Below are positions 24,410 to 60,500 of a stretch of DNA of 64,000 nt, in pieces. The translations under genes and the position numbers were made by a program. This DNA comes from Rhodopirellula halodulae (GTDB lineage Bacteria > Planctomycetota > Planctomycetia > Pirellulales > Pirellulaceae). The number at the start of each line of letters is the position of its first letter. Position 1 is the stretch's first letter. The notes under the pieces were generated by a model. That model saw only the letters and a program-made list of their open reading frames with translations. It searched no databases and was not told the origin of the DNA. Location of the stretch: contig NZ_JAJKFV010000029.1 in assembly GCF_020966775.1 (NCBI RefSeq), forward strand, positions 1,419,001-1,483,000, read 5' to 3'.

Positions 24410-24860
24410 CGAATACCTCCGAAGCGGTGCGGGGATCGGATCCATTTCGACCGTGTCGATCGGGCGCAATCAAACGAACCGGGCCAAACGAACGGTGCCA
24501 ATCGACAGGGCAAAAAAACGAGCGGGTCAACTCAAACCGGGGCAACTCAAACACAGGGATGTAACAAACGGTCGCGCGGAAACGCGGAGTGTCGTGACGA
24601 CGAGTGACCGTGTGGACAAAAAGTGTTTGCCGATTGTCTTTCCGAGGCTGTCGTTGCGTGTTCCGCCGTTCTGTTGCAGCCCGGGGCACACAGAACGTCG
24701 ACTCAGGTCAGCTTCTATTTTTCCCAATCGGACAGGTCTTGGGAACCGGCGAAGCGAATGACGCCCCCGGCTGATTGTCGCTCGGATGACGCAGGGCTAC
24801 ACTACAACAGTCACCCCAAAGGCATCCCTCCCACTCGCATTTTGTATCGATAGATCGCCC
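24410..24860. other. Divergent intergenic region, regulator / gltA
   Basis: 451 bp between the leftward response-regulator gene and rightward gltA. The reading frames inside have no recognisable domain. Both promoters should lie here; I see no strong palindrome or riboswitch-like fold by eye. Confidence 0.5.
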
Positions 24861-26177
24861 ATGAGCTCCTCGTCCAGCCTGGAAATTCAACGAGCCGAAA
24901 CCGTCCGAATGCAAATCGGAGATCGAAATCTCGAACTGCCATTGGTGGAAGGAACCGAACAGGAACAAGCGATCGACATCAGTCGATTGCGTGCCGAGAC
25001 CGGCGTGATCACGCTCGACGAAGGCTTCGTCAACACCGGCAGCACTCGCAGTGCGATCACGTTCCTAGATGGTGAAAAGGGAATCCTTCGCTATCGCGGA
25101 TACCCGATCGAACAGCTAGCGAAGACATGTGACTTCGTCGAAGTTGCGTACTTGCTGATCTTTGGTGAATTGCCGACCGCGGACGAGATCAACACGTTCC
25201 GATCCGGCATTCGCGAACACACGATGATCCATGAGGACATGCGATCGTTCTACAACGGTTTTCCGCGTGACGCTCACCCAATGGCGATCCTCAGCAGCGT
25301 GGTTGGGGCGCTGTCCACGTTCTACCAAGACTCATTGGATCCCAACGATCCACGCCAAGTCGAGATCTCGCTTTATCGATTGATCGCAAAGCTGCCGACC
25401 ATTGCGGCGTACAGCTACAAAAAGTCGATGGGCCAACCGTTCATGTATCCCAAGAACGAGTTGGAATACTGCGAGAACTTCTTGTACATGATGTTTGCGA
25501 CGCCCGCGTCGGATTACTTGGTCGATCCCGACTTCGCGGAAGCATTGAATTTGTTGTTCATCGTGCATGCCGATCACGAGCAGAACTGCAGCACCTCCAC
25601 CGTTCGGATGGTCGGCAGCAGCAACGCGAACTTGTTCGCTTCGATCTCCGCCGGCATCGGAGCCCTTTGGGGGCCACTTCACGGTGGTGCCAACGAGGCT
25701 TGCGTGAACATGTTGGAACGCATCGCTGCCGATGGTGGTAACGTCCAGAAGTACGTCGATATGGCGAAGGATAAAACGAACGATTTCCGGATCATGGGCT
25801 TTGGACACCGCGTTTATAAAAACTCCGATCCGCGTGCCACGATCATCCGAGCCAGTTGCGACAAGTTGCTCGCCAAACTGAACCTGGACGATCCGTTGTT
25901 CGAGGTCGCTCAGAAGTTGGAAGAGGTCGCTCTGAAAGACGAGTACTTCATCGAACGCAAGTTGTATCCCAACGTCGATTTCTACTCGGGCGTGATTTAC
26001 CGAGCCCTTGGAATCCCCGTGCAGATGTTCACGGTGTTGTTCGCGATCGGGCGTTTGCCAGGCTGGATGGCTCACTGGCGTGAGATGCAATCCAACCCCG
26101 CATCGCGGATCAATCGTCCACGTCAGGTTTACACCGGAGCCACCGAACGCGACGTGGTGGCATTGGACCAACGTTGA
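24861..26177 (+). CDS. gltA: Citrate synthase
   Basis: A 438-residue type II citrate synthase. Catalytic residues His274 (WGPLHGGAN), His316 (GFGHRVYK) and Asp373 (NVDFYSG) are all present, with the substrate-binding Arg of SRINRPRQVYTG near the C-terminus. The N-terminal domain resembles hexameric, NADH-sensitive gram-negative enzymes. Start: ATG 24861 gives MSSSSSLEIQ; the frame runs back to 24786 but is not supported. A single gene with no other TCA gene in the window. Confidence 0.95.
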   Translation: MSSSSSLEIQRAETVRMQIGDRNLELPLVEGTEQEQAIDISRLRAETGVITLDEGFVNTGSTRSAITFLDGEKGILRYRGYPIEQLAKTCDFVEVAYLLIFGELPTADEINTFRSGIREHTMIHEDMRSFYNGFPRDAHPMAILSSVVGALSTFYQDSLDPNDPRQVEISLYRLIAKLPTIAAYSYKKSMGQPFMYPKNELEYCENFLYMMFATPASDYLVDPDFAEALNLLFIVHADHEQNCSTSTVRMVGSSNANLFASISAGIGALWGPLHGGANEACVNMLERIAADGGNVQKYVDMAKDKTNDFRIMGFGHRVYKNSDPRATIIRASCDKLLAKLNLDDPLFEVAQKLEEVALKDEYFIERKLYPNVDFYSGVIYRALGIPVQMFTVLFAIGRLPGWMAHWREMQSNPASRINRPRQVYTGATERDVVALDQR

Positions 26178-29604: not shown

Positions 29605-32600
29605 CTAACCCTGCCCGGATTCAAACGAGTCCTCGACATCGCGGTAGGTCTTCATCATCTCATCGAGCTGAGTGTGCAAGCGGCTCAAATCACGACTGTT
29701 GCTGATCGATTCTTCCAGCAGCGGCCGCATCCATTCTTGCATCAGGTGGAATTGGCCTTTGACCAAATCCGCGAGGACGCGAGGCACCTTGTGCTGCACC
29801 AAGATCTTTTGATCCGGCGGCGATGCGGCCTGCTGACGCGAAATGGTTTCTAACTGAGTGGCGGTGGTCTCCAATCGATTCGACATCAACTCGCCCATCG
29901 CCAGCAGCGTTTGCCGCAGGTTGTCGACCCGAGAATCCATGCGTTCTTCGGCGGAGTGATCCTCCATGGCGATCGCTTTGGCAATCACTTGGCGAATGGA
30001 TTCCAGGCCGTCTCGCATGGATGCCAACTGACGCAGCACCTGAGTCGCTTGGTCCTCGCCGTCCATCCCGGCCATGCGGACGCTTTCCACGAACGCGTAC
30101 TTGATGGCGTCCCAACGTTGTTTTTCCTCCGGAGTCAGGATCCCCATCAGTTCCTTGAACTTCAGGACGTTGGATTCATTGTCGGTGGTCAGTGTTTGAG
30201 CGTCTTGCTCGTAGTTGCTGACGATCAATGATTGCAGTTCGGCATCGTTCATCACCGGTGCGACTCGCTCGGCGATGCGGTTCATGTTGCGGTAACTTCC
30301 TTGCAGCTTGAACGGAGGCTCTGTGCGATATTCATCCGCCTGAGCGGCAGAGCGAATGTAAGCCCGGTTCACCCGAAGCACGACATCACGAACGCGAAGG
30401 AGTTTGCGAGTGACCTCGAACATGTCACGGATCTGGTCCAGACTGAACGAGGCTTCCAGTTCGATGCCTTCGACAGAATCGCGGGTTGCTGCTGCGATGA
30501 TGGTCCGTGCATCGGCGGGCGAAGCGTTGGCGAGCGGTGCCAGCGTGACATTGCTGGTCAAGCAGTTTTCGAGGTAACTCATCTCGAACGCTTCGGCCGA
30601 TTCGCCGATGATCTCGCCCAAGTTGTATACGTCGGCCCGGTTGGACAGCATGTCGGGAATCTGGAACCGTTCACCGGATTCCGTGTAGGGGTTCCCCGCC
30701 ATCACCACGGCGACGCGACGACCGCGAAGATCGTAGGTGCGCGTTTTTCCGTTTCGAACGCCTTCAATTCGGCGGGTGGCATCGCACAAAGAGATGAACT
30801 TTTGGAGCAGCTCGGGATGGGTGTGCTGAATGTCATCCAAGTACAGCATGACGTTGTCACCCATTTCGAGTGCCAAATTCAGCCGCATGACTTCTTCGCG
30901 AGCGGCTGCGTTGGGCGCTTCCGCCGGATCCAACGATGTCACACCGTGCCCAATCGCCGGACCATTGATCTTCATGAAGACCAACCCAAGCCGGCTGGCG
31001 ATGTACTCCATCAAAGTGGTTTTGCCGTAACCGGGCGGCGAGATCAGCAACAGCAATCCCATGCGATCGGTTCGTTTGTCTTCGCCGACCGTCCCCATTT
31101 GTTTGGCAAGATTGTCACCAATCAGCGGCAAGTAGACTTGGTCGAGCAATTGGTTGCGGACGAAACTGCTCAGCACGCGAGGTTTGAACTCGTCCAAACG
31201 CATCGAGTCACGAGCTTCCTGCACGCATTCTGATTTGGCGACGTGCAACGAACGGAAACGAGGCACCACGTTTTCTCGGTAGTGACGCAGACGCGTCACA
31301 AAATCGTGATAGTGCAGCGTCATCGTTTCTCGTTCGATGCGCGGATGACTGCCGGCCAGTCCCGTCAGTTCCCGAGTCACTGACGCGGGAATGACTTGCT
31401 TTCCTGGCAATCGGTTGGTGCTGGTTTCTTTCGCTTCCAACACCGATTGATAGATCAACCAAGCCAATTCGTCTCGATACCATTTGGGTGAATCGCCCGC
31501 GTCCTTTTCCGATTGGTCCTTTCGTTTTTGTAAAAAAGCATCCGCCCAGTTGCGTGCCAGCACAAACGCGTGGGTCGGCGAGGATGTGGTCGGCTTGAGG
31601 CCGCCCAGGACCCATCGTTTCTGATCCGATTCGGGCAACGAATCAACAAAGTCTTTGCGCAGGGAATCGGCTTGTTCACTCACCGCGAATTTGGTGGGGG
31701 CCGTTACCAATTGTTGGAACAGATATCCCGCGATGCGTTCGGCGGTGATGTCGGTGGAAAATAGCGGCTGCCAATCATCTTGCTGCTGACGAGCCAATTC
31801 GGCGAGATGATTGCGGAATTCGATGGCAGGCTCCGCGTCCGGAAACGCAAACGCCAGTTTTGCGAATCCTGCAATCCATTGTTCCATCTGCTTGCGCTGT
31901 TTTGCGTCCAGGAAACATCGCCACCAAACTTGCGCGGCCGTTCGCAGTGACGGCGAATGGCGAAGCAGTCCAATGGATCGGTCAAGGTCGACCAGTCCGC
32001 GAAGAATGATGGCCGTGTCGTTGTCGTGAACACCTTTGGCGTAGCCCTCATCGAACCGACCCGCCATTTGCTCGGCAACCCAAGCGGGAGTGAGTTGATC
32101 CAGCTCTGCGATGGTGTCCATCTGACCGGATTCAAACAGGTCCATCGCCAAGTACTCAGCGCGGTAGACCACGTTGTTTTCGCTGACCAGCGATTGATTC
32201 CAAAGGTCTCGCGAAGATTCCAGGCGTTCGTCGCGAATGGGATCGAAATACTGGGTGCCGGTCAGGTGCAGACACAATTCTTCGCCGCGTAGCACCGTTG
32301 TCAGGTCCAACGGTTGCGTGTTCACCGCGAATTTGCGTTCGCCCAGCCGGATGACGTCGCCGCCGTCTTCATACAGATCTTGGCGATCTTTCAAACCACG
32401 AAGAGCGTCCTCGCGAAGGGTTTTGAGTCGACTTTGCAGATCGCCGACGCGAACGGCGTCACCCAGTTCATCCAGTTCGTCGATCAGGCTGCGGATTTTT
32501 CCGACCATCAAATCGCCCGCGAAGTAGGCGGCAATTTGATCGATCGATTCCATGTTCGAAACGCGGTGTTGGATGCCGCTTAAAATCCGGTCGGCGGCAG

Positions 32601-34974
32601 AACTCAACGCTTCGGCCCGTCGGTTCCGTTTCTCGACCAACGCCACTTTGCGAGATTCAAACGCGGCGTAAACCTCTTCGCGACGAGCCGCCAGTGTTTC
32701 GATGAATTCATCGAACTCGGCGAAGCGACCTTCCAGTTCCTCGAGCTGAACCATCACTTTGGTGAGGTACTCATCGCATCGATTTGGCGTGTCGCAGACG
32801 TCGAGGTAACCGGTGGTGGTTTGTTCCAATAGCTTCAACTGCGATGCAAATTCAGCTCGTCCTTCGACACCGATCAGCTCTTGTTTGCGGTTCTTTAGCG
32901 CACTGCGAACACGATTCACATTCGCGAATACGTCGCCGATCGAATCGATGATGGAGGTTCGTTTGGTCGCGTCGTCGATTTGCAGGTTGCTGACGGTTTC
33001 GGTCAGCAATTCCAAGTCCGCCGCGGCTTGGTCGATCTCTTCTTCGAGCTCTTTGGCCTGCGTGACACCCTTGATCTCCGGCACGCGTTGTTGCGTTTTC
33101 GCCACGCGGTCTCGGTACGGTTGCAGGGCGTCTTCGCCGAGCAAAAACTCCACGCAACGCCGGCTCAGGCGTTCGGATTGTTCCTCCGTGGTGGCTTCCA
33201 ACTCTTCAACGATGCTCAGGTCGACAAATCGAAGTTCACGCAGCGCGATCGCTCGGCCTCGCTGAACACGCAATTGAGCCAGTGAGCTGACGAACTGATC
33301 AATCGAAGCGAACCGTGAACGCTCGATCTCTTTGAGAACCTGTTGGGTCTCGGTTTGGACCTGGCGAGTTTGTTTGACGGTGGCTTGCCGAACACGAACG
33401 ACCTTTTCGTATTCCTCGATGGCCGCACCCGCCGCTTCGCGAATTTTGCGAAGGGGGTCGGCGAGGTGATGCGTTTCTTCGTTGTCGATCCAGAAGTAAC
33501 TGTCGAGAACATCACCAGCTTTCTTTGACAGGTCGACGTACAAGTCGTTGTAGCTGTCGTCCTTGTCGATCAGTTGCAAGATCTCGCTGCACTCGGCCAT
33601 CCCGCGAACGAGGTCTTTGTTCCCGATTTTGAACAGCAGCGAATCCGGTTGATTGTCCGGCAGGTAGTTTTCACTGGTGAACGGCGTTTGCCAAAGCTGG
33701 ATCGCATGATGCTTCTGCGGCGTGTCTTGGCCCTTGAAGCAAACCATCTCGCCGGCTTCGAAAAATGTTTGTCCGTGGCACACCAAAGGCGTGTCGACGG
33801 ATTGGCGAATTTGGTTGTAGCGAAGCTGGATGTACGTTCCGTCTTCCACGTTTGAAAACAGGTACAGGCTGTCTTCACCGTTGGGTGACACGATCGTTCG
33901 TTCGTAACGCATGTCGACCAAGCCATGGTCAAAGCGTTTGAACTCACCCGATTGCAGGTAGTACCCTCCGGGAAAGATCAGTCCTTGGTCACCCGGCAAC
34001 ATCACGCAGGCATGTTGAATCTCATCCAAGCGGAGTGCTTGGTTGATCTTGCCGTTGAAGATGATGTATCGGAACTGATTCTCTTGGTACGGTTTGATCT
34101 TCAGCAGCACCAAATGGCCGACGATCGCGTAGTGAATCTCGGCGTCGTCTAGTTTTTGGTCTGCGTTGTCGACCGGTTCGGCGTAGATGCCCTCCCCGCT
34201 GCTGGTGTTGTTTTCGACCTTGATGGTCAGGTCGCCACCGACCGTTTCGACAAAAACGCGATCATCGATCGAGATATGCGGGTGTTCGCCATAGTGGTGC
34301 ATGTCCCGCGTGGTGCGAACCCAGCGAAATTCGTGCTGGTCCGGCAACCGCACTTCATGATCGCTTCGGTTGTCGATGTATTGAAGCCCTTGTTCGCTGC
34401 GTCGCCATTTGAACGACTTGATGTCGCGAGCGGTTTTGCCGACGCGAAACACCATGTGCAGGATGGGACCACTGACGAAGAACCGCAGGAACGTCGTGTC
34501 TTTATAGAACCGATACAGCTCGTGGAAATCGTTCACGAAACGGTCATCTTGGATTCGTTCCAAGGATCGTTCGTGAAATTCTGTGTTTTTGAGTTGATAA
34601 ACCGAGAACACATCGGGCAATTCGATTTCCGTCTTCAGACCGAATTGGACGTTGTATCCAAAGAGAAATTCATCACCCATCGAGACGATGTCACGCGGCA
34701 CACAGTTGTGTTCCGTCGTGACACGCTGAGTCGCGATCAGGCGAGTTTCGATGTTCCCAAAGACTTCTCCGCGATCTTCATTCAGCCGCGACAGGCGATC
34801 TCGCAGATCGGTTGCCGCGGTTCGAAGACGATTGCGAAGCACCTCGTAGGTGCCGCCGGACAACTGCGCCGCTGCATCTTGCGAGGACTGTGCTTCGGCA
34901 CCGCGGTCGACGACCGATGGATCGGTCGCCGAATTCGAACGCGAAGCCGCTTCGGAGGAAGCGTCCGCAGCCAC
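29605..34974 (-). CDS. Giant AAA+ ATPase, DUF3686 'DNA repair ATPase' type
   Basis: 1789 residues. An N-terminal region of about 500 residues, largely beta-rich (RFFVSGPILHMVFRVG, FPGGYYLQSGEFKRFDHG), fits what I recall of DUF3686. A long coiled-coil/helical middle follows (about 520-1200). The AAA+ module has Walker A SPPGYGKTT with Lys1318, Walker B VMLYLDDIQ near 1385, sensor-1 VVMAGNPYTESGE and a DMLSNRADVYNLGEI segment like MoxR/midasin ATPases. The C-terminus is a second helical region ending DVEDSFESGQG. It starts with GTG 2 bp after the flotillin stop, so the two are translationally linked. The DNA-repair label is a family name only; its substrate is unknown. Confidence 0.75.
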   Translation of the reverse strand: MAADASSEAASRSNSATDPSVVDRGAEAQSSQDAAAQLSGGTYEVLRNRLRTAATDLRDRLSRLNEDRGEVFGNIETRLIATQRVTTEHNCVPRDIVSMGDEFLFGYNVQFGLKTEIELPDVFSVYQLKNTEFHERSLERIQDDRFVNDFHELYRFYKDTTFLRFFVSGPILHMVFRVGKTARDIKSFKWRRSEQGLQYIDNRSDHEVRLPDQHEFRWVRTTRDMHHYGEHPHISIDDRVFVETVGGDLTIKVENNTSSGEGIYAEPVDNADQKLDDAEIHYAIVGHLVLLKIKPYQENQFRYIIFNGKINQALRLDEIQHACVMLPGDQGLIFPGGYYLQSGEFKRFDHGLVDMRYERTIVSPNGEDSLYLFSNVEDGTYIQLRYNQIRQSVDTPLVCHGQTFFEAGEMVCFKGQDTPQKHHAIQLWQTPFTSENYLPDNQPDSLLFKIGNKDLVRGMAECSEILQLIDKDDSYNDLYVDLSKKAGDVLDSYFWIDNEETHHLADPLRKIREAAGAAIEEYEKVVRVRQATVKQTRQVQTETQQVLKEIERSRFASIDQFVSSLAQLRVQRGRAIALRELRFVDLSIVEELEATTEEQSERLSRRCVEFLLGEDALQPYRDRVAKTQQRVPEIKGVTQAKELEEEIDQAAADLELLTETVSNLQIDDATKRTSIIDSIGDVFANVNRVRSALKNRKQELIGVEGRAEFASQLKLLEQTTTGYLDVCDTPNRCDEYLTKVMVQLEELEGRFAEFDEFIETLAARREEVYAAFESRKVALVEKRNRRAEALSSAADRILSGIQHRVSNMESIDQIAAYFAGDLMVGKIRSLIDELDELGDAVRVGDLQSRLKTLREDALRGLKDRQDLYEDGGDVIRLGERKFAVNTQPLDLTTVLRGEELCLHLTGTQYFDPIRDERLESSRDLWNQSLVSENNVVYRAEYLAMDLFESGQMDTIAELDQLTPAWVAEQMAGRFDEGYAKGVHDNDTAIILRGLVDLDRSIGLLRHSPSLRTAAQVWWRCFLDAKQRKQMEQWIAGFAKLAFAFPDAEPAIEFRNHLAELARQQQDDWQPLFSTDITAERIAGYLFQQLVTAPTKFAVSEQADSLRKDFVDSLPESDQKRWVLGGLKPTTSSPTHAFVLARNWADAFLQKRKDQSEKDAGDSPKWYRDELAWLIYQSVLEAKETSTNRLPGKQVIPASVTRELTGLAGSHPRIERETMTLHYHDFVTRLRHYRENVVPRFRSLHVAKSECVQEARDSMRLDEFKPRVLSSFVRNQLLDQVYLPLIGDNLAKQMGTVGEDKRTDRMGLLLLISPPGYGKTTLMEYIASRLGLVFMKINGPAIGHGVTSLDPAEAPNAAAREEVMRLNLALEMGDNVMLYLDDIQHTHPELLQKFISLCDATRRIEGVRNGKTRTYDLRGRRVAVVMAGNPYTESGERFQIPDMLSNRADVYNLGEIIGESAEAFEMSYLENCLTSNVTLAPLANASPADARTIIAAATRDSVEGIELEASFSLDQIRDMFEVTRKLLRVRDVVLRVNRAYIRSAAQADEYRTEPPFKLQGSYRNMNRIAERVAPVMNDAELQSLIVSNYEQDAQTLTTDNESNVLKFKELMGILTPEEKQRWDAIKYAFVESVRMAGMDGEDQATQVLRQLASMRDGLESIRQVIAKAIAMEDHSAEERMDSRVDNLRQTLLAMGELMSNRLETTATQLETISRQQAASPPDQKILVQHKVPRVLADLVKGQFHLMQEWMRPLLEESISNSRDLSRLHTQLDEMMKTYRDVEDSFESGQG

Positions 34975-34976
34975 GA

Positions 34977-37040
34977 TCAGGCCTTCTTACCGTTGGAAGG
35001 AACTTTCTTTCCGGGAACCGTGTCCGGCGAACCGGCCAACAGACGACTGACTTTCTGATCCGCGACGTTTGCCGTGCCAGCCATGCTGAGCAGACTGGTC
35101 AGTTGAGTCCGGACATCATCGGTCGAGGTCATGCCCATCAATTTCGCAATCAAAGCGGCAATGGACAGGTCCTTCACCCCATCCGTGTCCAAACCGAACT
35201 GAGCGATCAGTTCCTTGATTTGGTCACGGAAGTATTCCGCGTTGCCATCGAAGAATGTGTTCTTGATGTCCGTTGCGACTTGGCTGTTGTAGACAAATCG
35301 ATCGATCGCTTTGCCGCCTTTGACCGCGGAAGTGATCTGGTCGAAGAATTCTCCATCGCCACCGACAATGTCGATGCGAGCCGCTTGCAAAGCTTCGCCG
35401 ATCACACCGGCTTGGCTTTCGGCGATGCCGCGTTGAGCATTGATCGCCGCGATTTCGACTTCCTTTTCCTTCTCCAGTTGGAGCTTGAATTCTTCGTGTT
35501 CTTTGCCAACACCATCCAGTTTCTTCATCGCTTCGGCCTTCTCGGTGATACCGGTTGCCTCGGCGGTGTATTTTTCGCGTGACACCTTGGCCTCGGCCAA
35601 GCCTTCCTTTTCGAGCGAGACCGCTTTGGCTTCCTGCACCTGAGCTTCGGCCAATCCAGCCGCAGCGGCTTGAGCGGCTTCGGCTTCCGCCAGCATCTTG
35701 GTCGCAGCGGTTTCTTTCTCGGCTGCGTCGCGTTTGGCTTCGGCTTCGATGCGGATCTTTTCGGCCAGCAATTCGCTGCTCTCTTTTTCCGTCTGAGCCA
35801 GCTTGGTTTGGCGAATCAGTTCTTCTTCGGCCTTCATCTGAGCGGCCGTGATTTGCACCGTTTTTTGACGTTCGGCTTTCGCATGTTCTTCGGTGTCTTT
35901 GATCCGTTCTTGTTCTTCGACCACCGCACGTTCGACCGCGACACGTTCGCGAATGACTTCTTGGATGTTGCGTTTTTCGACTTCGATTGCTTTCTCTTTT
36001 TCAACGTCGGCAACACCCACGACACGCATGCGTTCGGTGGCTTCCAAATCGCGATCTCGATTGACGCGTTCCAGTTCGACCGCATCCGTTTTCTCTTTGT
36101 TGCGCATCGCAACCAAGATCTGACGGGCTTTGTTTTCTTCGGCGATCCCGATCTCTTCTTCGGTTTGAATGCGGGCTCGTTCCGACTCCAAGCGTTGTTC
36201 TTCTTTGACCTTTGCCGCGGAAGCCTGTTCACGAGACGTGATCTCGGCGATTTCGCGTTGTTGTTTTTCAACGGCTTCGACGCGTTGACGCTCCAGTTCG
36301 AGGATCGTTTCCTCGGCCTCGACGTCTTGTTTCTTCAGCGTCTTTTCTTTGTCACGGGTGAACTGGTTTTCCTTGATCTTTTCGGTCGCGGTCAATTCGG
36401 TGATCTTCTTGATGCCTTCCGCGTCCAAAATGTTGGTCGGGCTGAGCATCTCGAGCGGTGTTTGTTCGAGGTAGTCGATTGCCGCGTCATCCAGACGGTA
36501 ACCGTTCAGATCGGTCCCGATGACTTTTAGAATTTCTTCTTTGAACTTGTCGCGTTGGTCATAGAGGTCGACAAAGTCGAACTGCTTCCCGACCGTCTTC
36601 AACGCTTCACTGAATTTCGCGTCGAACAATTCGCGAAGCGTTTCAAGTTCGCTACAGCGTTTGGCCCCGATGGATTGTGCGACCTCTTTCATCTCTTCGG
36701 GACTCTTATCGACCCGGACGAAGAACGCCACCTTGATGTCCGCTCGGATGTTGTCGCGGCAGATCAGGCCTTCGCTACCCTGTCTCTGGATCTCAAAGCT
36801 TTTCAGCGTGAGGTCCATGAACTCGTGTTGTTGGACGAGCGGGATGATCAGCATGCCTTCGCCGGTGACCGCGCGGACGCCGCCCGCACCCGATTTCACG
36901 ATGGCACGATCGGGGCCGACCTTGATGTAGTAACTCTTGAAGAGGATGGCGACCAACAATCCGACCAGGAACAGGCCTCCAACCAGGATGATCGCCGCAT
37001 CCTTGCCGACGGAGTCTGTGATAAGTGCAGCCAACATCAT
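34977..37040 (-). CDS. Flotillin family (YqiK-like) SPFH protein
   Basis: 687 residues. One N-terminal transmembrane helix (AAIILVGGLFLVGLLVAILF, residues 15-34), then the SPFH/Band 7 domain (about 35-220: YYIKVGPDRAIVKSG, GGVRAVTGEGMLIIPLVQ, DIKVAFFVRVD). A very long, charged coiled coil follows (about 220-560) with many Ala-Glu repeats such as TKMLAEAEAAQAAAAGLAEA. A globular C-terminal part (about 565-687) precedes a Lys-rich tail. Such proteins oligomerise into membrane microdomains. The YqiJ-like gene is upstream (174 bp) and the giant ATPase 2 bp downstream. Family certain, partner roles inferred. Confidence 0.88.
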   Translation of the reverse strand: MMLAALITDSVGKDAAIILVGGLFLVGLLVAILFKSYYIKVGPDRAIVKSGAGGVRAVTGEGMLIIPLVQQHEFMDLTLKSFEIQRQGSEGLICRDNIRADIKVAFFVRVDKSPEEMKEVAQSIGAKRCSELETLRELFDAKFSEALKTVGKQFDFVDLYDQRDKFKEEILKVIGTDLNGYRLDDAAIDYLEQTPLEMLSPTNILDAEGIKKITELTATEKIKENQFTRDKEKTLKKQDVEAEETILELERQRVEAVEKQQREIAEITSREQASAAKVKEEQRLESERARIQTEEEIGIAEENKARQILVAMRNKEKTDAVELERVNRDRDLEATERMRVVGVADVEKEKAIEVEKRNIQEVIRERVAVERAVVEEQERIKDTEEHAKAERQKTVQITAAQMKAEEELIRQTKLAQTEKESSELLAEKIRIEAEAKRDAAEKETAATKMLAEAEAAQAAAAGLAEAQVQEAKAVSLEKEGLAEAKVSREKYTAEATGITEKAEAMKKLDGVGKEHEEFKLQLEKEKEVEIAAINAQRGIAESQAGVIGEALQAARIDIVGGDGEFFDQITSAVKGGKAIDRFVYNSQVATDIKNTFFDGNAEYFRDQIKELIAQFGLDTDGVKDLSIAALIAKLMGMTSTDDVRTQLTSLLSMAGTANVADQKVSRLLAGSPDTVPGKKVPSNGKKA

Positions 37041-37214
37041 GAAGGTTCTTTCGTCTGAGTGACCTTGGGGAAGGATCGTGCGACGTTCCGCGAGCAGATC
37101 GTCGTCGTGTTTGCTGGGCCAGCGGGACTGTGAGAGTCTGCCGGTTTTGATTGGACAGGCGTGGTTTGCCGCCTCTTTCAGGGCATTGAATGCCGTCGGA
37201 GGGGGCGCGTGGAT

Positions 37215-37931
37215 CTAGATTTTCGGGGGATCATCCGCCCGAACGAGATAAGTCTTGTTGGCTCGATCATAATTCAAGACCACCACGCGTCCTCCTTTGG
37301 GGATGATTTCGCCCTCCGTTCGGACGGAAATCAGCAGGGGAGCAGCGTCTGTAGCGAATTTAGCGCGGCCAAAGTCCGAATCAGCTTGGCGGGTTTCGAT
37401 CACGGCGGTTCCGCCCACCAACGTCGACGCATGAAATTCGGTCGGCGGCACCAGCATCCGGTGCATCGGCCAGGTGAAAATCTTAGTCGCAATGACGCCC
37501 AGGACGCCGTTTCGAATTGTCAGCAACGCACTGGTCAGAATGGTGGGCTCATAGCGGCGGATGTCGAACTGAAACCACATCACGAAACTAATGACCCAGA
37601 ACAGCACGCTGAACACAGACAACCAAACCACCAAGGGAACTCGGTCCAAGTTCATGACCTTCAGCGTGGCCGCGCCGGTTCCACCCAGCCAGTCGCTGTG
37701 CATGGGCTCCCCGGTGACTTCGCCCGCCAGATCCGGCGAAAGGTCCGCACCCAAATCAGACGCATCAATCTCCGGCACATCCAAGTCGAGGTCGGCGTCC
37801 ATCCCAAGGTCCACGACGCCAAGCAAGGCGATGACCACGTAGAACAAAAACAACGCGGCCAGAACCGTTGCCGGCCACATCGGGCCGACAAGTATCGAGT
37901 CCAGTCGATCTGTCCAAATGGTCGCCAACAT
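37215..37931 (-). CDS. YqiJ-like OB-fold membrane protein
   Basis: 238 residues. Two or three transmembrane helices: WPATVLAALFLFYVVIALLGV near the N-terminus and LVVWLSVFSVLFWVISFVMWF at about 101-121, with a third amphipathic segment LLTIRNGVLGVIATKIF. Between helices 1 and 2 lies an acidic loop (LGMDADLDLDVPEIDASDL). The C-terminal 80 residues look like an NfeD-type OB fold (TLVGGTAVIETRQ, APLLISVRTE, PKGGRVVVLNYDRANKTYLV). This matches the E. coli YqiJ arrangement of an OB-fold membrane protein next to flotillin YqiK, and agrees with its neighbour here. Probably the first gene of the cluster. Confidence 0.72.
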   Translation of the reverse strand: MLATIWTDRLDSILVGPMWPATVLAALFLFYVVIALLGVVDLGMDADLDLDVPEIDASDLGADLSPDLAGEVTGEPMHSDWLGGTGAATLKVMNLDRVPLVVWLSVFSVLFWVISFVMWFQFDIRRYEPTILTSALLTIRNGVLGVIATKIFTWPMHRMLVPPTEFHASTLVGGTAVIETRQADSDFGRAKFATDAAPLLISVRTEGEIIPKGGRVVVLNYDRANKTYLVRADDPPKI

Positions 37932-38165
37932 GCATCTGTCTCCAGAAAAATCCTCTCGGGGGATCGCGGGATTCGATCATATCAGTTGGCACAAAGCGAA
38001 GTCGGATGGGGCGCATTTTGCCGGTCGGGATTTCTAACAATCGAGCATCTTGCCGGCGTGCAATCCGCCGAAAATCGATCTGTTTTGGTCGGGGTAAAAG
38101 CAGTAAAAGCTGACCTGCGGCTCCGTCTCCTATTTTGTCTGGTTGTTGATTTCGATCGCTGTTGA

Positions 38166-39572
38166 ATGAACGTTGTTGACCGTGAACTCGCTGCTGTTTC
38201 TCCCGAGAACGCGGGCAAAGCTGACGGACGAAATCTGGCTCGAAGCTTGGGTGATGCTGCTTGTTTTGGCGGAATGGTTGGTTGCGGCGAGACCTACTTT
38301 TCCGCGTTTGCTTTAGCCATCGGTTTGGGCGAGACGGCATCTGGGTTGGTGGCCAGTATTCCGTTGTTGGTTGGTGGCGTCATTCAGCTGATATCACCGA
38401 AGGCGATCGGTTGGATCGGCGGGTACCGCCGTTGGATTGTGCTGGGTGCGTCGCTGCAAGCGTGCGCGTTTTTGCCACTGGCCTATGCCGCGTGGACGGA
38501 ACGACTTTCGATCACCGCCTTTTTGTTGATCGCATCGGTTTATTGGACCGCTGGGCTATCGACCGGCCCAGCGTGGAACACTTGGATTGAAGACATCGTT
38601 CCCGCGGCGGGACGGGCCAAGTTTTTCTCCAAGCGTTCACGACTACAGCAGGTTTGCACCTTTGCCGCGTTGATGGTCGCGGGCATCGTGTTGCAGTGGA
38701 CCTCCAGTCAAAACGTTGCTCTGGTCGGTTTCGCGGCGTTGTTCTTCATGGCGGCGTTCTTTCGATTGTTGTCGGCGAACTTCTTGCATCGCACACGCCA
38801 GTCCAAGCCAGCCACGAATCATGAAGTGACTCGGTCCATTGAGAGGCCATCCCACACGATGGAACCAAATGATGAGGCGGCGAACACTCAGCCAACACTT
38901 TCAAACACCGAAGAGGTGAACTTCCGATCGGCCATCAGCTTGCTCTCGTACTTGGTGGTGATGCAGGTCTTCATCCAGCTCAGCGGTCCCTATTTCGTGC
39001 CGTACATGTTGGGGCAGTTGAACATGGGATATCTCACCTATGTCGGTTTGATTGCGTTGGCCTTTCTTAGCAAGGTGATTTCGTTTGCCTACTGGGGACG
39101 AGTGGCCGAAGAATCTGGTGCGTCCAAAGTTCTTTGGTTCGGCGGAATTGGTTTGATTCCGCTATCCGCTTTGTGGATCGTATCCACCAACCTGTTGTGG
39201 TTGGCCGTCATTCAGGTGCTGAGCGGGATCGCTTGGGCGGCTTACGAACTCGGGTTCTTTCTGATGTTTTTTGAAACGCTTCCCGCGAAACATCGAACCA
39301 AACTGCTGACCTACCATAACTTTGCGAACACTCTGGCGATCAGCATAGGAGCATTGGCGGGTGCCGCGGCGTTGGCACATTTCGGAACCGAGTCCACGAC
39401 CTACTACTATCTCTTTGGTATGTCTTCGATTGGACGCATGCTGTGTTTGGGATTGTTAGTCGGATTGGTGCTGCCCAAACATTCGCTCAAGACGATCGGG
39501 ATTCGTATCCTCGCCATTCGTCCGGGGGCGGGAAGCGTGACCGCACCGGTGATCGCTAGCGCGGAAGAGTGA
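38166..39572 (+). CDS. MFS transporter
   Basis: 468 residues with about 12 hydrophobic helices, in two halves joined by a hydrophilic loop (about residues 210-255, Asn/Thr/Glu-rich). It begins LARSLGDAACFGGMVGCGETYFSAFAL and has a TGPAWNTWIEDIVPAAGRAKFFSKRS loop, the MFS-like gate motif after helix 4. Substrate unknown. It is convergent with the ThuA-domain gene, and the hairpin at 39605-39628 separates them. Confidence 0.75.
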   Translation: MNVVDRELAAVSPENAGKADGRNLARSLGDAACFGGMVGCGETYFSAFALAIGLGETASGLVASIPLLVGGVIQLISPKAIGWIGGYRRWIVLGASLQACAFLPLAYAAWTERLSITAFLLIASVYWTAGLSTGPAWNTWIEDIVPAAGRAKFFSKRSRLQQVCTFAALMVAGIVLQWTSSQNVALVGFAALFFMAAFFRLLSANFLHRTRQSKPATNHEVTRSIERPSHTMEPNDEAANTQPTLSNTEEVNFRSAISLLSYLVVMQVFIQLSGPYFVPYMLGQLNMGYLTYVGLIALAFLSKVISFAYWGRVAEESGASKVLWFGGIGLIPLSALWIVSTNLLWLAVIQVLSGIAWAAYELGFFLMFFETLPAKHRTKLLTYHNFANTLAISIGALAGAAALAHFGTESTTYYYLFGMSSIGRMLCLGLLVGLVLPKHSLKTIGIRILAIRPGAGSVTAPVIASAEE

Positions 39573-44094: not shown

Positions 44095-47000
44095 ATGCCG
44101 CTGCAACTTGTTGATTTTTGGAAACGGATGGTCCAAAGCGGGCTGGCCGATACATCGAAACCGCCCGTGTGGGCGGCTGAATATGCGGACGACCATGCTG
44201 GAGAACCTCCCGCAGACGTCGGTGAATTGGCGAAATGGCTGGTCCAAACGGGACGAGGCCACAAATACCCCATCACGGAAATCCTGCAGCATTCGTCGTG
44301 GGAATCGGAATATCCCTCCACACCGATCCTCCGAATCGCCCCGCTGACGCTAATCGCAGACGATTTGACGTGCCCATTTCCATTTCGAGATTGGCAATCG
44401 GTGGAACGAGAGCCCCTTGGCGATCAGGAAGCACCGACCACCGGAGTCCTCCGACAATTGGACCCGTCGAAGCTGAGTGCGGACGCGGCGGCTCGTTTGC
44501 GTTCCCACGCAACGGTGTCGGACGAATCGTTGCAGTCACTGGAAATCCTGCCGCTACGAAACGGTCCGTTGGGACAACCCGTTGTCAGCCGCCGAGACTT
44601 CGCGGGTGTCTTGAGCGTGCTTCCGCCGGGCAAGGCTTTGTCCTTGAGGTCCAAGCCACGAACGGTCGCGCGAACCGTCGAAATTTTGCGTCCGCTCTGT
44701 CGAGCTTTGTCAGCGTTGCATGCGGCGGGTTTGGTTCACGGCGAACTTGGCTTTGACCGCATTTGGATGGATGCGTCCAAACGTTGGACCTTGTTGCGAA
44801 ACCCATTCGCTGGACTGCCAAGCTTCCTCAGCGAAACAGCAACGCTGAGTGGAACTCGCTGGTTGCAGCAGTCCGACGATGCGCAGCAGTTCTGGTCACC
44901 GGAACATCTTCGCGGACGGGAGAAGCATGTGGCCGCGGTCGCCGATGATATCTACGCGATGGGATGTCTTGGCTACGCTCTTCGCTATGGACGCCACGCA
45001 TTTGAAAGCACTTCGCGTGAACGACTGCCAAGCGAACTGACCGATGCGGTTTCGCAAGGAGCCAGCGGCGATCCGTTATGTCGGGTGTTGGCCGCGGCGT
45101 TGGCGAGTGACCCTTCCGCACGATTCGCAACCGTCGAGCAATTGATCAACGCATTGGAGGTTGCATCCAAAGCGACTCCCGTCCAGGCGACACCCGCGAT
45201 CAAGAGCGATCCTGTCGCGATGCAGAAGAAAGTCATCGCAGAAACGAAGTCAGTAGCCGCGAAGCAGTCCCCCGAATCGGCCGGTGAGAAGAAAACCACG
45301 CAACCGACGAAGCAAGCAAGTTCTACTACGCCAGCAACAACGCGTGAATCAGCCAAGCCAAACGCGACAGCGGCCTCCGCGTCGACGTCAGCAGGTTCAT
45401 CCGGTCCGACGAAGATTGCTGACAAGAAAATTGCTGACAAAAAGGTTGCCAACAAAGCAGCGCTGGCCGGTGAAACTAAGCCCAAATCGGAATCAAATAC
45501 CGAGCCGAAAGCGAAGCCAGATTCAAGCCGAGTCGAGCAACCCAAACCGGCAAGCCAACCTGTTGCGTTGAATGAAGAGACGACTTCGGACGACGCGAAA
45601 AAACTTGGCGGGACCAGCCCACCGACGCCGGAACCCGAACCCACGACGCTCCCATCACCGGTCGAGGACGCATCGGTTAAAGGTGCATCGGTCAAGGATG
45701 CTGCAGTCAAAGATGCATCGGTCGAGCCGAGCGCAGTGGAGCCGTCTCCGCAAACGGCCGAACCAGAAACGCCGGAATCCAATGACTCGCCTCGACAGGT
45801 TTCTCCGGCGGTTGTTCCCGCTCGTCGAAGACGCAAACGCAAGAATCAAAAAGCGTGGTACGCCATCTACGCGTTGTGTTTGCCCGTCCTGATGCTGGTG
45901 ATTGCTTTGGCGGTTCGGGACAAGAATCCACCGCCCGTGGCCAAACGCATTCGTCCGCCGGCACCGCAATTCATTCCTCGTGTTTCCAGCGACACCGACA
46001 AGCCGAAACCTGTTCAGCCGACGCCCCGGCCGTCTCGTCCTCAACCCACCGGGATCCAAGTGGTCGACAACGACCAAATGCTGTGGGCCCCTCCTGATTT
46101 GAGTGGCGGAGACGGGCAAGTCAATCGTGCCACCGCATTGTTGCCTCCTGGACCAGCCGCCGTGGTCACAATCGACTGGACGCAGTTGCAACGGTTGGGA
46201 TTGATGGAGTTGTTCGAGCCCGAGACCAAAGCATGGCTGGAAACTTTGAACCAATGGTCCGGAGTCGCTGAACAATCCATCTCGCATGTCGCGCTCGCTT
46301 GGTTCCCCGGGGCAGAGGGCGTGCCGGAGGTGGCCGCTGCGATCCGATTGAAAGACCCAAAGTCGCTCGAAGAGTTGTTGGAGACTTGGGAAGCGTCTGC
46401 TGCGAGAAGCAAAGAAGGGCACACGATCTACGCCGGTGACGATCTCGATGCGTTGGCCTACTTCGCGATGACTCAAGGCCGCGTCGCTACCGCCGCGGAT
46501 GATATGGTCGACGCGTTTGCGGTGGGTTCCATCGAACGCATCGGTGAAGTTGCGGAGCTGGAAGGGTCCCCGGTGGTGTTGCCGCGTTTGCTAGAAGAGC
46601 TTTGGCAATCGGCACGTCCCAACGATGCCATCGCATTCCTGACTCAACCCAATTTCCTGGTCAGCGACGCTCGCAAATGGATGGAAGCGACTTCGCCCAC
46701 GCTGATTCCTTGGATTCGCCAAAATTTGCTGGCCGACTGCGGCGGCGTTCTTGTCAGGCTGGCGTCCGCGGAACCAGATGCAAATTCGACCGAGACGCCC
46801 ACCGCCTCGTATGTGGAAGTTCGTTTGGCGGCTGCACCGGGCGTCGACCCGTCTGAGCTGGCGGATCCTTTGCGTGCTCAATTGTCGAATGCTCCACGAT
46901 GGGCGGAAGACTTCCTGGTCACACGCGACATCGATGCGTCATGGAGATTGCTGGCGGCCCGCTTGCCATCCATGTGGGCGTTCGCAGAGGAAAACGTGCG

Positions 47001-47550
47001 AACAGGTCGATCGGACCGAAAGATCATTTGGAATGCCTACTTGCCACCACGAGCCCTGCCACAATTGACCTTGGCGACGCTGCTAGCGAGCAACACGACG
47101 TCGGTTGAATCGACTGGGACGGCGATGGCGGGTGATCAAACCAAGTTGACGGTGGCTCAAATGTTGGACCGACGAATGTCGGTCAGCTTTGATCAGGAGT
47201 CGCTGCAATTTGCCGTCGACACGATCGTCGATGAGTTCAATGGCGATCTACCCGCTGGAAACCAGTTGCCACCGATCACCATCATCGGTGGTGATCTTCA
47301 GAAGATGGGCATCACTCAGAACCAGCAGATCCGAGATTTTTCCAAGAGCGATGTTCCTCTGCGTAGGGTGTTGACCGATCTGGTGCTGGGAGCCAACCCG
47401 GACCGCACGGCGACCGGTCCCGCGGACCTCAAGCAAGCCTTGGTGTGGGTGGTCCGATCCGATGAATCTGAGATTCTGATCACCACACGGGAAGCTTCCA
47501 AAGGCAACTATGAGTTGCCGGAAGAGTTTGTTCCGCAGTCCAGCCCGTGA
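44095..47550 (+). CDS. Membrane-anchored pseudokinase, 1151 residues
   Basis: Residues about 150-365 resemble the C-lobe and part of the N-lobe of a Ser/Thr kinase: LRPLCRALSALHAAGLVHGELGFDRIWMD, then FWSPEHLRGREKHVAAVADDIYAMGCLGYALRYGRHAF and a DPSARFATVEQLINAL end. The HRDxxxxN motif is HGELGFDR (215-222), so the catalytic Asp is missing, and no DFG is visible; it should be inactive. Residues 365-580 are low-complexity with repeated ADKK and ASVKD-type units. One membrane helix (YAIYALCLPVLMLVIALAV, about 588-606), then a 540-residue exported part. It probably senses or scaffolds across the membrane. Confidence 0.7.
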   Translation: MPLQLVDFWKRMVQSGLADTSKPPVWAAEYADDHAGEPPADVGELAKWLVQTGRGHKYPITEILQHSSWESEYPSTPILRIAPLTLIADDLTCPFPFRDWQSVEREPLGDQEAPTTGVLRQLDPSKLSADAAARLRSHATVSDESLQSLEILPLRNGPLGQPVVSRRDFAGVLSVLPPGKALSLRSKPRTVARTVEILRPLCRALSALHAAGLVHGELGFDRIWMDASKRWTLLRNPFAGLPSFLSETATLSGTRWLQQSDDAQQFWSPEHLRGREKHVAAVADDIYAMGCLGYALRYGRHAFESTSRERLPSELTDAVSQGASGDPLCRVLAAALASDPSARFATVEQLINALEVASKATPVQATPAIKSDPVAMQKKVIAETKSVAAKQSPESAGEKKTTQPTKQASSTTPATTRESAKPNATAASASTSAGSSGPTKIADKKIADKKVANKAALAGETKPKSESNTEPKAKPDSSRVEQPKPASQPVALNEETTSDDAKKLGGTSPPTPEPEPTTLPSPVEDASVKGASVKDAAVKDASVEPSAVEPSPQTAEPETPESNDSPRQVSPAVVPARRRRKRKNQKAWYAIYALCLPVLMLVIALAVRDKNPPPVAKRIRPPAPQFIPRVSSDTDKPKPVQPTPRPSRPQPTGIQVVDNDQMLWAPPDLSGGDGQVNRATALLPPGPAAVVTIDWTQLQRLGLMELFEPETKAWLETLNQWSGVAEQSISHVALAWFPGAEGVPEVAAAIRLKDPKSLEELLETWEASAARSKEGHTIYAGDDLDALAYFAMTQGRVATAADDMVDAFAVGSIERIGEVAELEGSPVVLPRLLEELWQSARPNDAIAFLTQPNFLVSDARKWMEATSPTLIPWIRQNLLADCGGVLVRLASAEPDANSTETPTASYVEVRLAAAPGVDPSELADPLRAQLSNAPRWAEDFLVTRDIDASWRLLAARLPSMWAFAEENVRTGRSDRKIIWNAYLPPRALPQLTLATLLASNTTSVESTGTAMAGDQTKLTVAQMLDRRMSVSFDQESLQFAVDTIVDEFNGDLPAGNQLPPITIIGGDLQKMGITQNQQIRDFSKSDVPLRRVLTDLVLGANPDRTATGPADLKQALVWVVRSDESEILITTREASKGNYELPEEFVPQSSP

Positions 47551-57510: not shown

Positions 57511-60500
57511 TCAGACGCTCGCCAAACGGTCCAGCATCACCGGATCGTTGGGCGACGGCGACATTGGGTCGACGCCCAAGGTGCCTTGCAACGAATCAAT
57601 ATACTCCGGCGACTCCGCCAATTGGCGTTGCTGGTTCGCATATTCCACCTGATCCGACATGTTCAAGCGTTCTGCGGCGTCCGTGTTTCGCGGGTCGTCC
57701 AGGAAGGCCTGCAAACGTTCTTGCATCGATTTCCAGTGTTCAATGTCACGTTGTTGTTTGGCTTCGAGTCGTCGTCGATACCAATCACTGTTGACCAATG
57801 ATTCACGAGAGAACAATTCACGAACGGCCGGATCGTCGATCGTTTTTCCGTTGTGTTCGCCGTGAACCATGATGTCCAAAACGGCTCGCAACGGCGGACA
57901 AGCCAATTCGTAACCCGAGTCTTCGAAGTAGTTTTTCGCAACACGAGCTTGTGCTTCCGCAATTTGCAAGACTCCGTCGGCGAAGGAATCGAGGTCCTGA
58001 TGTTCAGGACGCAAAACAGGATCGGGGAAGACTTTGGCGGGGTTGTCGAACACGCGAGCCAAATACGTGCGGACGAATTTGTCGGTGATGCGGTAACCCA
58101 AACGGCTGGCGGGAATTTGCTGGCCGTTGTGTTCGAAGTCTTCGACTTTCTCCAACATGCCCGCCGCCAACATCTGACGCGGATCACGTTCCTCTGCCGT
58201 CATGCGGCACCAAACTTCGGGAATCAGCAACGAAATGTCGTGGCCGACTTCCAAATCAGGTCCGATGTGACCGGCGGGAGTGCTGAAGCCACCCAGGTCC
58301 GTGAGGATCATCGAGACGATGACCGCATTCAAATCAATTGCTGGGTGAAGCGCGTTGAATGGACCCTTGGTCAATGCACCTTCGCTGCCCGCACCCGTGG
58401 TGCTGGGGCTCTTGCCGGTCAGTGAACACACATAATCCATCACCAGTTCAGGAAGTTCCTGATAGTGCAGCGGCGAGTAAACGGCCAGCGAGCGAATGCC
58501 TGCTTCGGCTTCTGGTGGATTGTTGCGACGACCGGACAGCACCGCGCCGACGGGCGTCAACACCGCGTCGTTGGTGCCGAGTTTGCGATGCAATTGAATG
58601 CCACGCATTGCAACATAGGTTTCTCGCGGAGAAGCCATGTCTGGGCGATCTTGCAGGTAACGTGGATTCTTGGTGGGCTTGCCATCCACGATGCGTGGAT
58701 TGGCGGTGCTGACGACAAAGCCATCGTCGGACGCGGCCGATTTTTCCAGCAAGTCTTCCATTGGCCCGGTGAACTTATCGAACTCGATCGCGTCACGCAT
58801 GATGTCGCGAGCGTTTTCGCTGGTCAGCGGTTCGAAGTTGCTGATGAAGTTGCCTGGTGCGGCCAAGTCGGCTTCGGTTTGTTTGTCCAAACCGCGGTGG
58901 ATTGCGTCGTCAGGACGTTGGAACAAACGATATTCGCAGTTCTCGACAAACTTGTAGCTGGGGGCTTCCGCGACAGCCGATCCGACATCTCCGATGCTTC
59001 CCGCGGGCACGACGATGCTGGCGGAAATGTCGTCTTCCTTTTGGACTTTCGCCGATGCGATGAAGTCCTGACGCAATTTGAAGGTCCGCCACTGGGACTT
59101 TTCCAAACCGACGCGGAGGTAGGTACCCACCAACGGACGGCTGCCGATTTTCAGTTCGTGACCTGGTGATCCGTTGACGATGTCGACGCCGAAGGATTCA
59201 CGCCAATCCTGTTCCATGTCAGGAGCCGCGAAACGTTTGATGATCAATGCCAATGCATAAACGTGTTCCGGAATGCTCTTCAGCCAAGCGTTGTAATCGT
59301 CGTTGTAATCAGGGCTGGGGGTCAGCAGTTTGATGACGCTGCCCAGCGAACGACCGGGGTCCAAGACTTTACGGCTGGGGCGTTCGGTGTAATCGGTGCG
59401 GCCGGTGTAGGTTTCCGACCAACGTGTGCCGTAGTCCTTCGAGAAAATTTCGTCGACCAATTTGAAGTCGACGTCGTGGTCTTTGACGAAGATCGGTCCA
59501 TACAACATGTAGTCGCGAAGACTCTTGCTGATCTCGCTCTTGCCACCACCGCTGACCGTGCAAGGTTTGTGGCAGAACACACCTTCGCCCACCGTGCCGA
59601 TCAATCGCCAGCTCGGTGCCGACGGGTGCTTTTGAAGTTGAATCTTGTAGCCGCTCGGTGCGATGTAGATTTCTTCCGGCGAAAGCGGAATGGATTGTTC
59701 TTTCCCAGATGCGTCGGTCCAACGAATGCATCGTTCGCGAAGAGTGGCCAGAGCATTTTCAGGGATGTAGACGACGCTCGGGTGAACGCGATCGATCCCG
59801 TAGCCTTCGGGTTGGATATCGATGAAGTCCGAATACAGCTTGGCCACGTCGGCAAAGGTTTGGCCGTTGTAGAGGCGGCTGTTGACTTGGAACTCATCTC
59901 CCAAGGAATAGGACGCGAAGGCGATGGCACCGCCCGCGTGTTCCTCTTCCGCGTTGCCCATCAAGTTGGCGGCGTAGCTGAGCTGTGTCTTGACTTCTTT
60001 CTTGCAGTATCCGTAGTAGTTGTCGGCGATCAGGGTCACCACGACTCCGTCGCTGTTGCGGCAAGTCAGCTTGAACGCGCCGCCATCGTTGTACAGTTCG
60101 GATTCATCTTGCCAGCACATACGATCGCGACGCTGTCGCTCGGAGGCATCGTCGTAGTGCGGCAGACCCAATTCTTTCTTCGTGAACTTGGTCAAGTGAG
60201 TCGCCAGAATCACACAGCCCGTGTGACCGCTCCAGTGTTTGGCGTCCAACCCAGCATCGCCAGCAGCGATCAACGGGTCGCCCGCATTTCCAAAGATCGA
60301 TTCGACGAAGTCCAGATTGCTGACATAGTTGCCTGGAACGAAGAACCGCGTTTCCATGCTTTTATGTTCGCTGAAACCGGGGATTCCCGGAGCCACCAAC
60401 GGACGCAGCATCAGCGACACCCATGACTGCGCGGGATGCGGCGAGTTGTGGGTGTAAGGCAATTCCATGTCTTCCGCCGGTGGCTGCATCGCCGCACGGA

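What the first reader, a model, noticed from the sequence alone, without database searches (positions are those of the whole stretch)
29605..37931. Flotillin, YqiJ-like OB-fold protein and giant AAA+ ATPase in one cluster
A membrane OB-fold protein, a YqiK-type flotillin with a long coiled coil, and a 1789-residue AAA+ ATPase follow one another on one strand, and the ATPase starts 2 bp after the flotillin stop. The flotillin/OB-fold pair alone is known from E. coli yqiJ/yqiK. Adding a tightly coupled giant ATPase with a MoxR/midasin-like core suggests a membrane-microdomain-tethered remodelling machine. The 'DNA repair' label for this ATPase family is only a name; membrane stress response, envelope quality control or phage defence are all possible. 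This is the best candidate for an undescribed system in the window.
Basis: partly seen in the sequence, partly recalled or inferred. Interest (0 to 1): 0.8.

Follow-up and report, generated by a model that had tools for sequence, protein, structure and literature searches.

The report
Flotillin operon with giant remodelling ATPase
Three neighbouring bacterial genes make a membrane scaffold (flotillin plus its small membrane partner) and a giant ATP-driven motor that nearly always travels with it; the gene set was already described in 2024, but this genome seems to use it without the stress protein PspA thought to be its partner.

Summary
In detail: on the minus strand, 37931-29605, lie a YqiJ/NfeD-type membrane protein (238 aa), a YqiK-type flotillin (687 aa) and a 1789-aa DUF3686 AAA+ ATPase 2 bp behind it. 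The link is not chance: in samples of three phyla (735 genomes) 62 genomes carry the ATPase, 61 also carry the matching flotillin, and 57 have it next door on the same strand. Models show a beta-propeller, a long helical part and an AAA+ core that one structural ranking places nearest MoxR-type ATPases. I found no support for DNA repair or phage defence. It is not undescribed: Ravi et al. 2024 (PMC11237479) report this gene set with a CesT/Tir-PspA pair, and shorter versions. Added here: how tight the coupling is, an extension seen in the ATPase-linked flotillins, and that this 99.97% complete genome (and one R. baltica assembly) shows no PspA, so PspA looks accessory and the three genes look like the core. 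Most likely function: ATP-driven remodelling of proteins held at flotillin sites of the inner membrane; complex and clients are inferred. Known kind; interest 0.4.

The parts
37215..37931 (-). YqiJ/NfeD-type membrane protein (238 aa): hydrophobic N-terminal segment, acidic stretch, hydrophobic region, C-terminal part like the OB-fold of NfeD (topology read by eye)
   Evidence: 81 of the 90 loci with a flotillin also have such a gene on the same strand
34977..37040 (-). YqiK-type flotillin (687 aa): hydrophobic N-terminus, SPFH/Band 7 domain, long coiled-coil-like part
35061..35243 (-). C-terminal extension of the flotillin (about residues 600-660), present in ATPase-linked flotillins and largely missing in the others compared; candidate docking segment (inference)
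   Evidence: gap fraction 0.01-0.02 in 86 ATPase-linked rows, 0.75-0.88 in 12 others; mostly missing in E. coli YqiK
29605..34974 (-). Giant AAA+ ATPase (1789 aa; DUF3686, DUF7902, AAA)
33685..34743 (-). Predicted beta-propeller of the ATPase (residues 78-430, within DUF3686)
   Evidence: AF2 model of residues 1-870, mean pLDDT 85.8; best solved matches are propellers, DCAF1 first, Z 10.0, rmsd 7.6, 224 aligned
32365..33639 (-). Long helical, coiled-coil-like part of the ATPase (residues 446-870)
30139..31206 (-). AAA+ core (residues about 1257-1612): Walker A 1313-1320, Walker B DD 1380-1381, sensor 1 N1428, arginine R1446, sensor-2-like R1562; hairpin before sensor 1
   Evidence: K1318, T1319, D1380, D1381, N1428, R1446 and R1562 invariant in the 52 rows of A6, window included; AF2 model; CbbQ Z 16.7, NorQ Z 15.9; motif names recalled
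37932..38165 (.). Intergenic stretch between the operon and the divergent MFS gene (38166-39572 +); presumed promoter region (inference; the scan found no consensus promoter here)

Best explanation
The three genes encode one inner-membrane machine. The flotillin and its YqiJ/NfeD partner form an oligomeric scaffold on the cytoplasmic side of the inner membrane. The giant ATPase is recruited to it (perhaps through coiled coils or the C-terminal extension of these flotillins), recognises client proteins with its N-terminal beta-propeller, and uses its AAA+ ring to pull on, remodel or dissociate them; no protease domain was recognised. PspA and a CesT/Tir chaperone are accessory partners or clients in Bacteroidota and a few other versions; in this planctomycete the core works without PspA. 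Shown: gene order and strand, cross-phylum co-occurrence, congruent trees, conserved ATPase residues, predicted domains, no PspA detected. Inferred: the complex, its membrane site, client threading, any role in stress.
For: Flotillin next to the ATPase on the same strand in 39 of 39 planctomycete genomes, 6 of 6 Bacteroidota (L054) and 12 of 17 genomes of the Verrucomicrobiota sample; matching flotillin present in 61 of these 62. Of 41 close flotillins in the planctomycete sample 39 have the ATPase next door, the other 2 end at contig ends; in the Verrucomicrobiota sample all 16 genomes with a high-scoring flotillin have the ATPase and the 4 with a low-scoring one do not. ATPase and flotillin tree distances correlate, r 0.82 against at most 0.18 in 500 shuffles (86 pairs). 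The pair survives small insertions between the genes and an inversion in L077. ATPase residues invariant. S. aureus FloA-NfeD stabilises unfolded proteins without ATP (PMC11222466, passages); an ATPase would supply an energy step.
Against: No interaction, localisation or client is shown. Congruent trees show joint inheritance, not an interface. Of 62 genomes five do not have the genes adjacent: one 3.7 kb apart, three on different contigs, one (G744) with no flotillin found at E <= 1e-40; L037 and L046 carry the two apart. E. coli has yqiJ-yqiK without this ATPase. The MoxR-like label is uncertain: Foldseek ranks MCM and RuvB first, sequence hits favour VCP-like ATPases, and the helix-2 insert was not seen.
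Confidence: 0.6

Rival explanations
1. ESCRT-like reading: the ATPase is a functional analogue of Vps4 that takes apart PspA (ESCRT-III-family) polymers at flotillin sites; short operons use a PspA encoded elsewhere (the suggestion in Ravi et al. 2024).
For: A PspA-like gene lies within 6.5 kb upstream or 1.5 kb downstream of the ATPase in 25 of 101 loci and CesT/Tir in 20; in the phylum sample PspA is over Pfam's cut-off in 27 of 39 ATPase genomes against 48 of 255 others (odds ratio 9.7, not corrected for relatedness). Best sequence hits of the AAA+ part to solved structures are weak ones to VCP-like ATPases.
Against: No PspA over cut-off in the window's own genome and none at E below 0.01 there, in G274, G052, G111, G040, G305 (R. 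baltica) or G308 with a profile that includes planctomycete PspA, while two genomes with no row in that profile (G303, G291) were found. CesT/Tir was found near the ATPase only in Bacteroidota.
Confidence: 0.2
2. MoxR-like maturation factor: the ATPase activates or loads a cofactor into one specific membrane enzyme, as NorQ does with NorD (recalled), and the flotillin only concentrates it.
For: CbbQ and NorQ are the best structural matches by Z.
Against: Only PspA and CesT/Tir recur at a fixed place beside the trio among the 45 largest neighbour clusters listed (the other clusters were not identified); the window's own flanks are not conserved.
Confidence: 0.1
3. Phage defence system.
For: Patchy distribution (39 of 294 genomes in the phylum sample). 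One of ten further window genes scanned, 44095-47550, 6 kb from the operon, matches kinase-type PADLOC models such as PD-T4-6 (E 2e-14), but on the other strand and not shown to be linked.
Against: For the three proteins PADLOC gives only E 0.004-0.01 P-loop fragments of the ATPase; no relative found in viral contigs by the pattern scan. Neighbours in other genomes were not scanned for defence genes.
Confidence: 0.04
4. DNA repair ATPase, as the Pfam family title says.
For: The title of PF12458 and weak RuvB hits.
Against: Fixed membrane-protein neighbours; the RuvB matches span about 45 residues round the P-loop and lie far below NCBI's cut-off (20.5 against 282 bits).
Confidence: 0.03
5. Chance adjacency.
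For: None found.
Against: 57 of 62 ATPase genomes in three phylum samples.
Confidence: 0.01

Closest known systems
[quoted passage not shown] and its abbreviated form (Ravi et al. 2024, mSystems, PMC11237479; passages seen)
   Same: Same three proteins and ATPase architecture; Bacteroidota loci here carry the five-gene version.
   Different: The window has the abbreviated form and its genome shows no PspA. The paper's held text does not use the word DUF3686 (in no paper held), so that its ATPase is this family is inferred from architecture and gene set.
E. coli yqiJ-yqiK
   Same: OB-fold membrane gene followed by flotillin; homologous proteins.
   Different: No ATPase follows in E. coli K-12; PF12458 rang in none of the 14 control genomes; YqiK mostly lacks the C-terminal extension.
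S. aureus FloA-NfeD (PMC11222466; passages)
   Same: Flotillin with an NfeD partner at membrane microdomains.
   Different: Described there as ATP-independent stabilisation of unfolded proteins; no ATPase gene partner in the passages seen.
MoxR AAA+ ATPases CbbQ and NorQ
   Same: Best structural matches of the AAA+ core by Z (16.7 and 15.9).
   Different: The matched chains are 235-267 residues; here a 1789-aa protein with propeller and helical part. Not first in Foldseek's order (ranks 6 and 7).
HflKC-FtsH
   Same: SPFH scaffold with an AAA+ motor (start of abstracts in the listing).
   Different: FtsH is a protease; no protease domain was found in this ATPase.

Membership tests
Abbreviated flotillin-YqiJ-AAA+ operon of Ravi et al. 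2024 | Neighbouring YqiJ/YuaF-type TM gene, band-7/flotillin gene and AAA+ ATPase gene | tested here: met
Abbreviated flotillin-YqiJ-AAA+ operon of Ravi et al. 2024 | ATPase with N-terminal beta-propeller and coiled coil | tested here: met
   predicted model and propeller matches, Z 8-10
Abbreviated flotillin-YqiJ-AAA+ operon of Ravi et al. [quoted passage not shown]
   own genome: best PF04012 match E 0.071, under cut-off; best match with the wider profile E 0.305. A strongly divergent PspA could be missed
YqiK-type flotillin | SPFH/Band 7 domain, long coiled-coil-like part, NfeD/YqiJ-type partner gene | tested here: met
MoxR-type AAA+ | Hairpin before sensor 1 (feature recalled) | tested here: met
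   strands 543-548 and 551-556 of the model precede the strand 562-568 that ends at sensor 1
MoxR-type AAA+ | Helix-2 insert (feature recalled) | tested here: inconclusive
   no strands between 483 and 512 of the model; only a loop is seen there
MoxR-type AAA+ | Closest relationship by sequence or structure | tested here: inconclusive
   first by Z, sixth and seventh in Foldseek, not first by sequence
Vps4/ESCRT | Acts on ESCRT-III/PspA polymers | not testable with these tools
   no PspA detected in the host
Anti-phage defence system | Match to a known or candidate defence protein | tested here: not met
   PADLOC: E 0.0042 and 0.0098 over about 30 residues of the ATPase, none for the other two
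Flotillin-ATPase complex | Physical interface | not testable with these tools
   only single chains can be folded here

The most novel reading that the evidence does not exclude
A PspA-independent, ATP-powered flotillin microdomain: the core unit is YqiJ + flotillin + a propeller-bearing remodelling ATPase, an ancient and widespread bacterial machine, to which PspA and CesT/Tir were added as accessory parts mainly in Bacteroidota; the ATPase turns the flotillin scaffold from a passive holder into an active remodeller of membrane-associated proteins.
Probability: 0.4. Interest if true: 0.65.

Novelty: new member of a known kind. Interest (0 to 1): 0.4.

Why it matters
What bacterial flotillins do is a long-standing open question. 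An ATPase that is hardly ever found without one class of flotillin gives that class an energy-using partner and a direct experiment. A genome that keeps the set with no detectable PspA lets flotillin function be studied apart from the phage-shock response.

Tried and rejected
Chance adjacency: rejected (and others). DNA repair: nothing beyond a family title and weak P-loop hits. Phage defence; neighbours in other genomes were not scanned. PspA as a general part of the operon: not borne out (25 of 101 loci). Conserved flanks: homologues (E <= 1e-10) of six of seven nearby window genes were found in none of the other loci held at that time; the seventh, 24786-26177, has opposite-strand relatives far from the ATPase in 4 loci. 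Consensus promoters and terminators: not above shuffles (3 against mean 3.4; 16 against mean 13.6). Greedy gene calling hid flotillins under antisense ORFs and was replaced by a search of all ORFs. Tree by phylum: 12 changes for 11 labels (least 10), but Planctomycetota alone need 6 changes once the phylum-sample rows are labelled, so transfer or old duplication is likely and the tree does not simply follow phyla. The A4 profile found no PspA in the own genome, but that run had no positive control. An apparently longer ATPase frame in L032 is a run of masked bases and was left alone. Literature: 'DUF3686' in no paper held; 'DNA repair ATPase' with 'flotillin' in none; the four terms AAA+ ATPase, beta-propeller, flotillin, bacteria together only in PMC11237479. 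Dropped before counts: 7 of 80 loci cut by contig ends; 15 of 101 loci without a complete pair for the trees; 2 of 14 second-class flotillins (broken or merged frames). Bacteroidota was not searched for flotillins without the ATPase. VIA-align lists leave open families that do not appear in them; no Vps4 row is among the 50 shown.

Full report
What is there. On the minus strand of 29605-37931 three genes follow each other: a 238-aa membrane protein of the YqiJ/NfeD kind, a 687-aa YqiK-type flotillin and a 1789-aa AAA+ ATPase whose GTG start lies 2 bp behind the flotillin stop. Upstream is a divergent MFS gene; downstream, 18 bp on if its TTG start is right, a Sua5-type gene. Homologues of these flanks were not found near the ATPase in the other loci, so the three genes are taken as the unit.

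Is the link real. In a sample of 294 genomes of the window's phylum, 39 have DUF3686, and all 39 have the flotillin on the same contig and strand, at most 2.2 kb between the matched pieces. Of 41 close flotillins in that sample, the two without the ATPase sit at contig ends. In 247 Bacteroidota genomes 6 have the ATPase, and all 6 loci have the flotillin next to it (L103-L107, L054). In 194 genomes of the Verrucomicrobiota sample 17 have it; 16 of 17 have the flotillin at E <= 1e-40, 12 within about 2 kb on the same strand, one 3.7 kb away, three on other contigs; one (G744) has none at that threshold and none near the ATPase. A separate scan of genome contigs kept the best 80 loci, which carry 11 phylum labels, several from titles of binned genomes; of 73 not cut by a contig end, 69 have the flotillin upstream on the same strand, and 60 of these 69 also a YqiJ-type gene. 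The four exceptions are L077, where flotillin and YqiJ-type gene lie inverted next door, and L037, L046 and L068, whose genomes carry the flotillin elsewhere. These 80 are the best matches to the window's family. ATPase and flotillin tree distances agree (r 0.82, shuffles at most 0.18).

Flotillins without the ATPase. The phylum sample also has a second class of YqiK-like flotillins, 28-32% identical to the window's. All 14 such loci that I fetched have a YqiJ-type gene and no ATPase; 5 have a PspA-like gene close by; several of these contigs are short. Comparing 86 ATPase-linked flotillins with 12 of these 14 shows a C-terminal extension around residues 600-660 that the latter mostly lack, as does E. 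coli YqiK. It may be a docking site, but the classes are also separate lineages, so this is only a lead.

What the ATPase is. Models of its two halves have mean pLDDT 85.8 and 84.2. Residues 78-430 form a beta-propeller (the listed matches are mostly WD40 and other propellers, best DCAF1, Z 10.0 with rmsd 7.6, a middling score), 446-870 long helices, and about 1257-1612 the AAA+ core. By Z its nearest solved structures are CbbQ (16.7, rmsd 3.8, 251 aligned) and NorQ (15.9), then dynein (14.8), midasin (13.8) and ClpA (13.7). Foldseek's order begins with MCM and RuvB, with CbbQ and NorQ at ranks 6 and 7, and the best sequence hits to solved structures are VCP-like ATPases at E 0.0005-0.001. A MoxR-like core is the better guess, not a settled membership. 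Key residues are invariant in 52 rows.

PspA. In 20 of 32 Bacteroidota loci CesT/Tir and PspA genes lie ahead of the trio; outside Bacteroidota a PspA-like gene was near in 5 loci (L004, L014, L033, L043, L074; in L033 and L074 behind the ATPase, in L004 some kilobases ahead) and CesT/Tir in none. PspA was confirmed by Pfam for L054, L014, L033 and L043 and CesT/Tir for L054. Two verrucomicrobial loci fetched later have two PspA-like genes each. In the phylum sample PspA goes with the ATPase (27 of 39 against 48 of 255), but 12 of 39 lack it at Pfam's cut-off. Six of the 12 were retested with a profile that includes planctomycete PspA: G056 then has one (E 4.4e-14); the window's genome (best E 0.305), G274, G052, G111 (0.036) and G040 (0.012) have none below E 0.01. 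Nor have G305 (an R. baltica assembly) and G308. Positive controls in that run: G303 and G291, not in the profile, and G304 and G009, which have rows in it. G274 had a partial match at E 1e-4, under the cut-off, not repeated. The other six of the 12 were not retested. The own genome is rated 99.97% complete and 4.16% contaminated. A strongly divergent PspA cannot be excluded.

Literature. Ravi et al. 2024 (PMC11237479; [quoted passage not shown] The finding is therefore a member of a described kind. PMC2636767 (passages) describes SPFH-NfeD operons; the word ATPase does not occur in its held text. PMC11222466 (passages) shows FloA-NfeD stabilising unfolded proteins without ATP. PMC13086221 and PMC11188069 (passages) gave no match to this set.

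Reading. The best account is a flotillin-scaffolded remodelling ATPase of the inner membrane, with PspA as an accessory in some lineages. The gene-level statements are shown; the complex, site and clients are inferred.

Noticed in passing
L108-L121 (own phylum): A second class of YqiK-like flotillins with a YqiJ-type gene but no ATPase; 5 of 14 loci have a PspA-like gene close by.
   Followed up: partly
L077:5935-14863: Flotillin and YqiJ-type gene inverted relative to the ATPase but still next to it.
   Followed up: no
L027:9920-15235: ATPase reading frame appears in three pieces (776, 57 and 887 aa), possibly a frameshift or assembly error.
   Followed up: no
L020, L045, L056 between flotillin and ATPase: Small genes that look like REP-type transposases (by eye, not searched) between the two genes; L050, L011, L094 and L080 have other small genes there.
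   Followed up: partly
L144 and L150 (Verrucomicrobiota sample): Two PspA-like genes in a row ahead of the YqiJ-type gene and flotillin.
   Followed up: no
L142 (G744): ATPase with no flotillin nearby and none found in the genome at E <= 1e-40; the one clear exception.
   Followed up: partly
window 44095-47550 (+): 1151-aa frame without a Pfam match at E <= 0.001 that matches kinase-type PADLOC models (PD-T4-6, E 2e-14, residues about 190-440); kinase nature of those models is recalled.
   Followed up: no
window 57511-61053 (-): 1180-aa open frame without a Pfam match at E <= 0.001.
   Followed up: no
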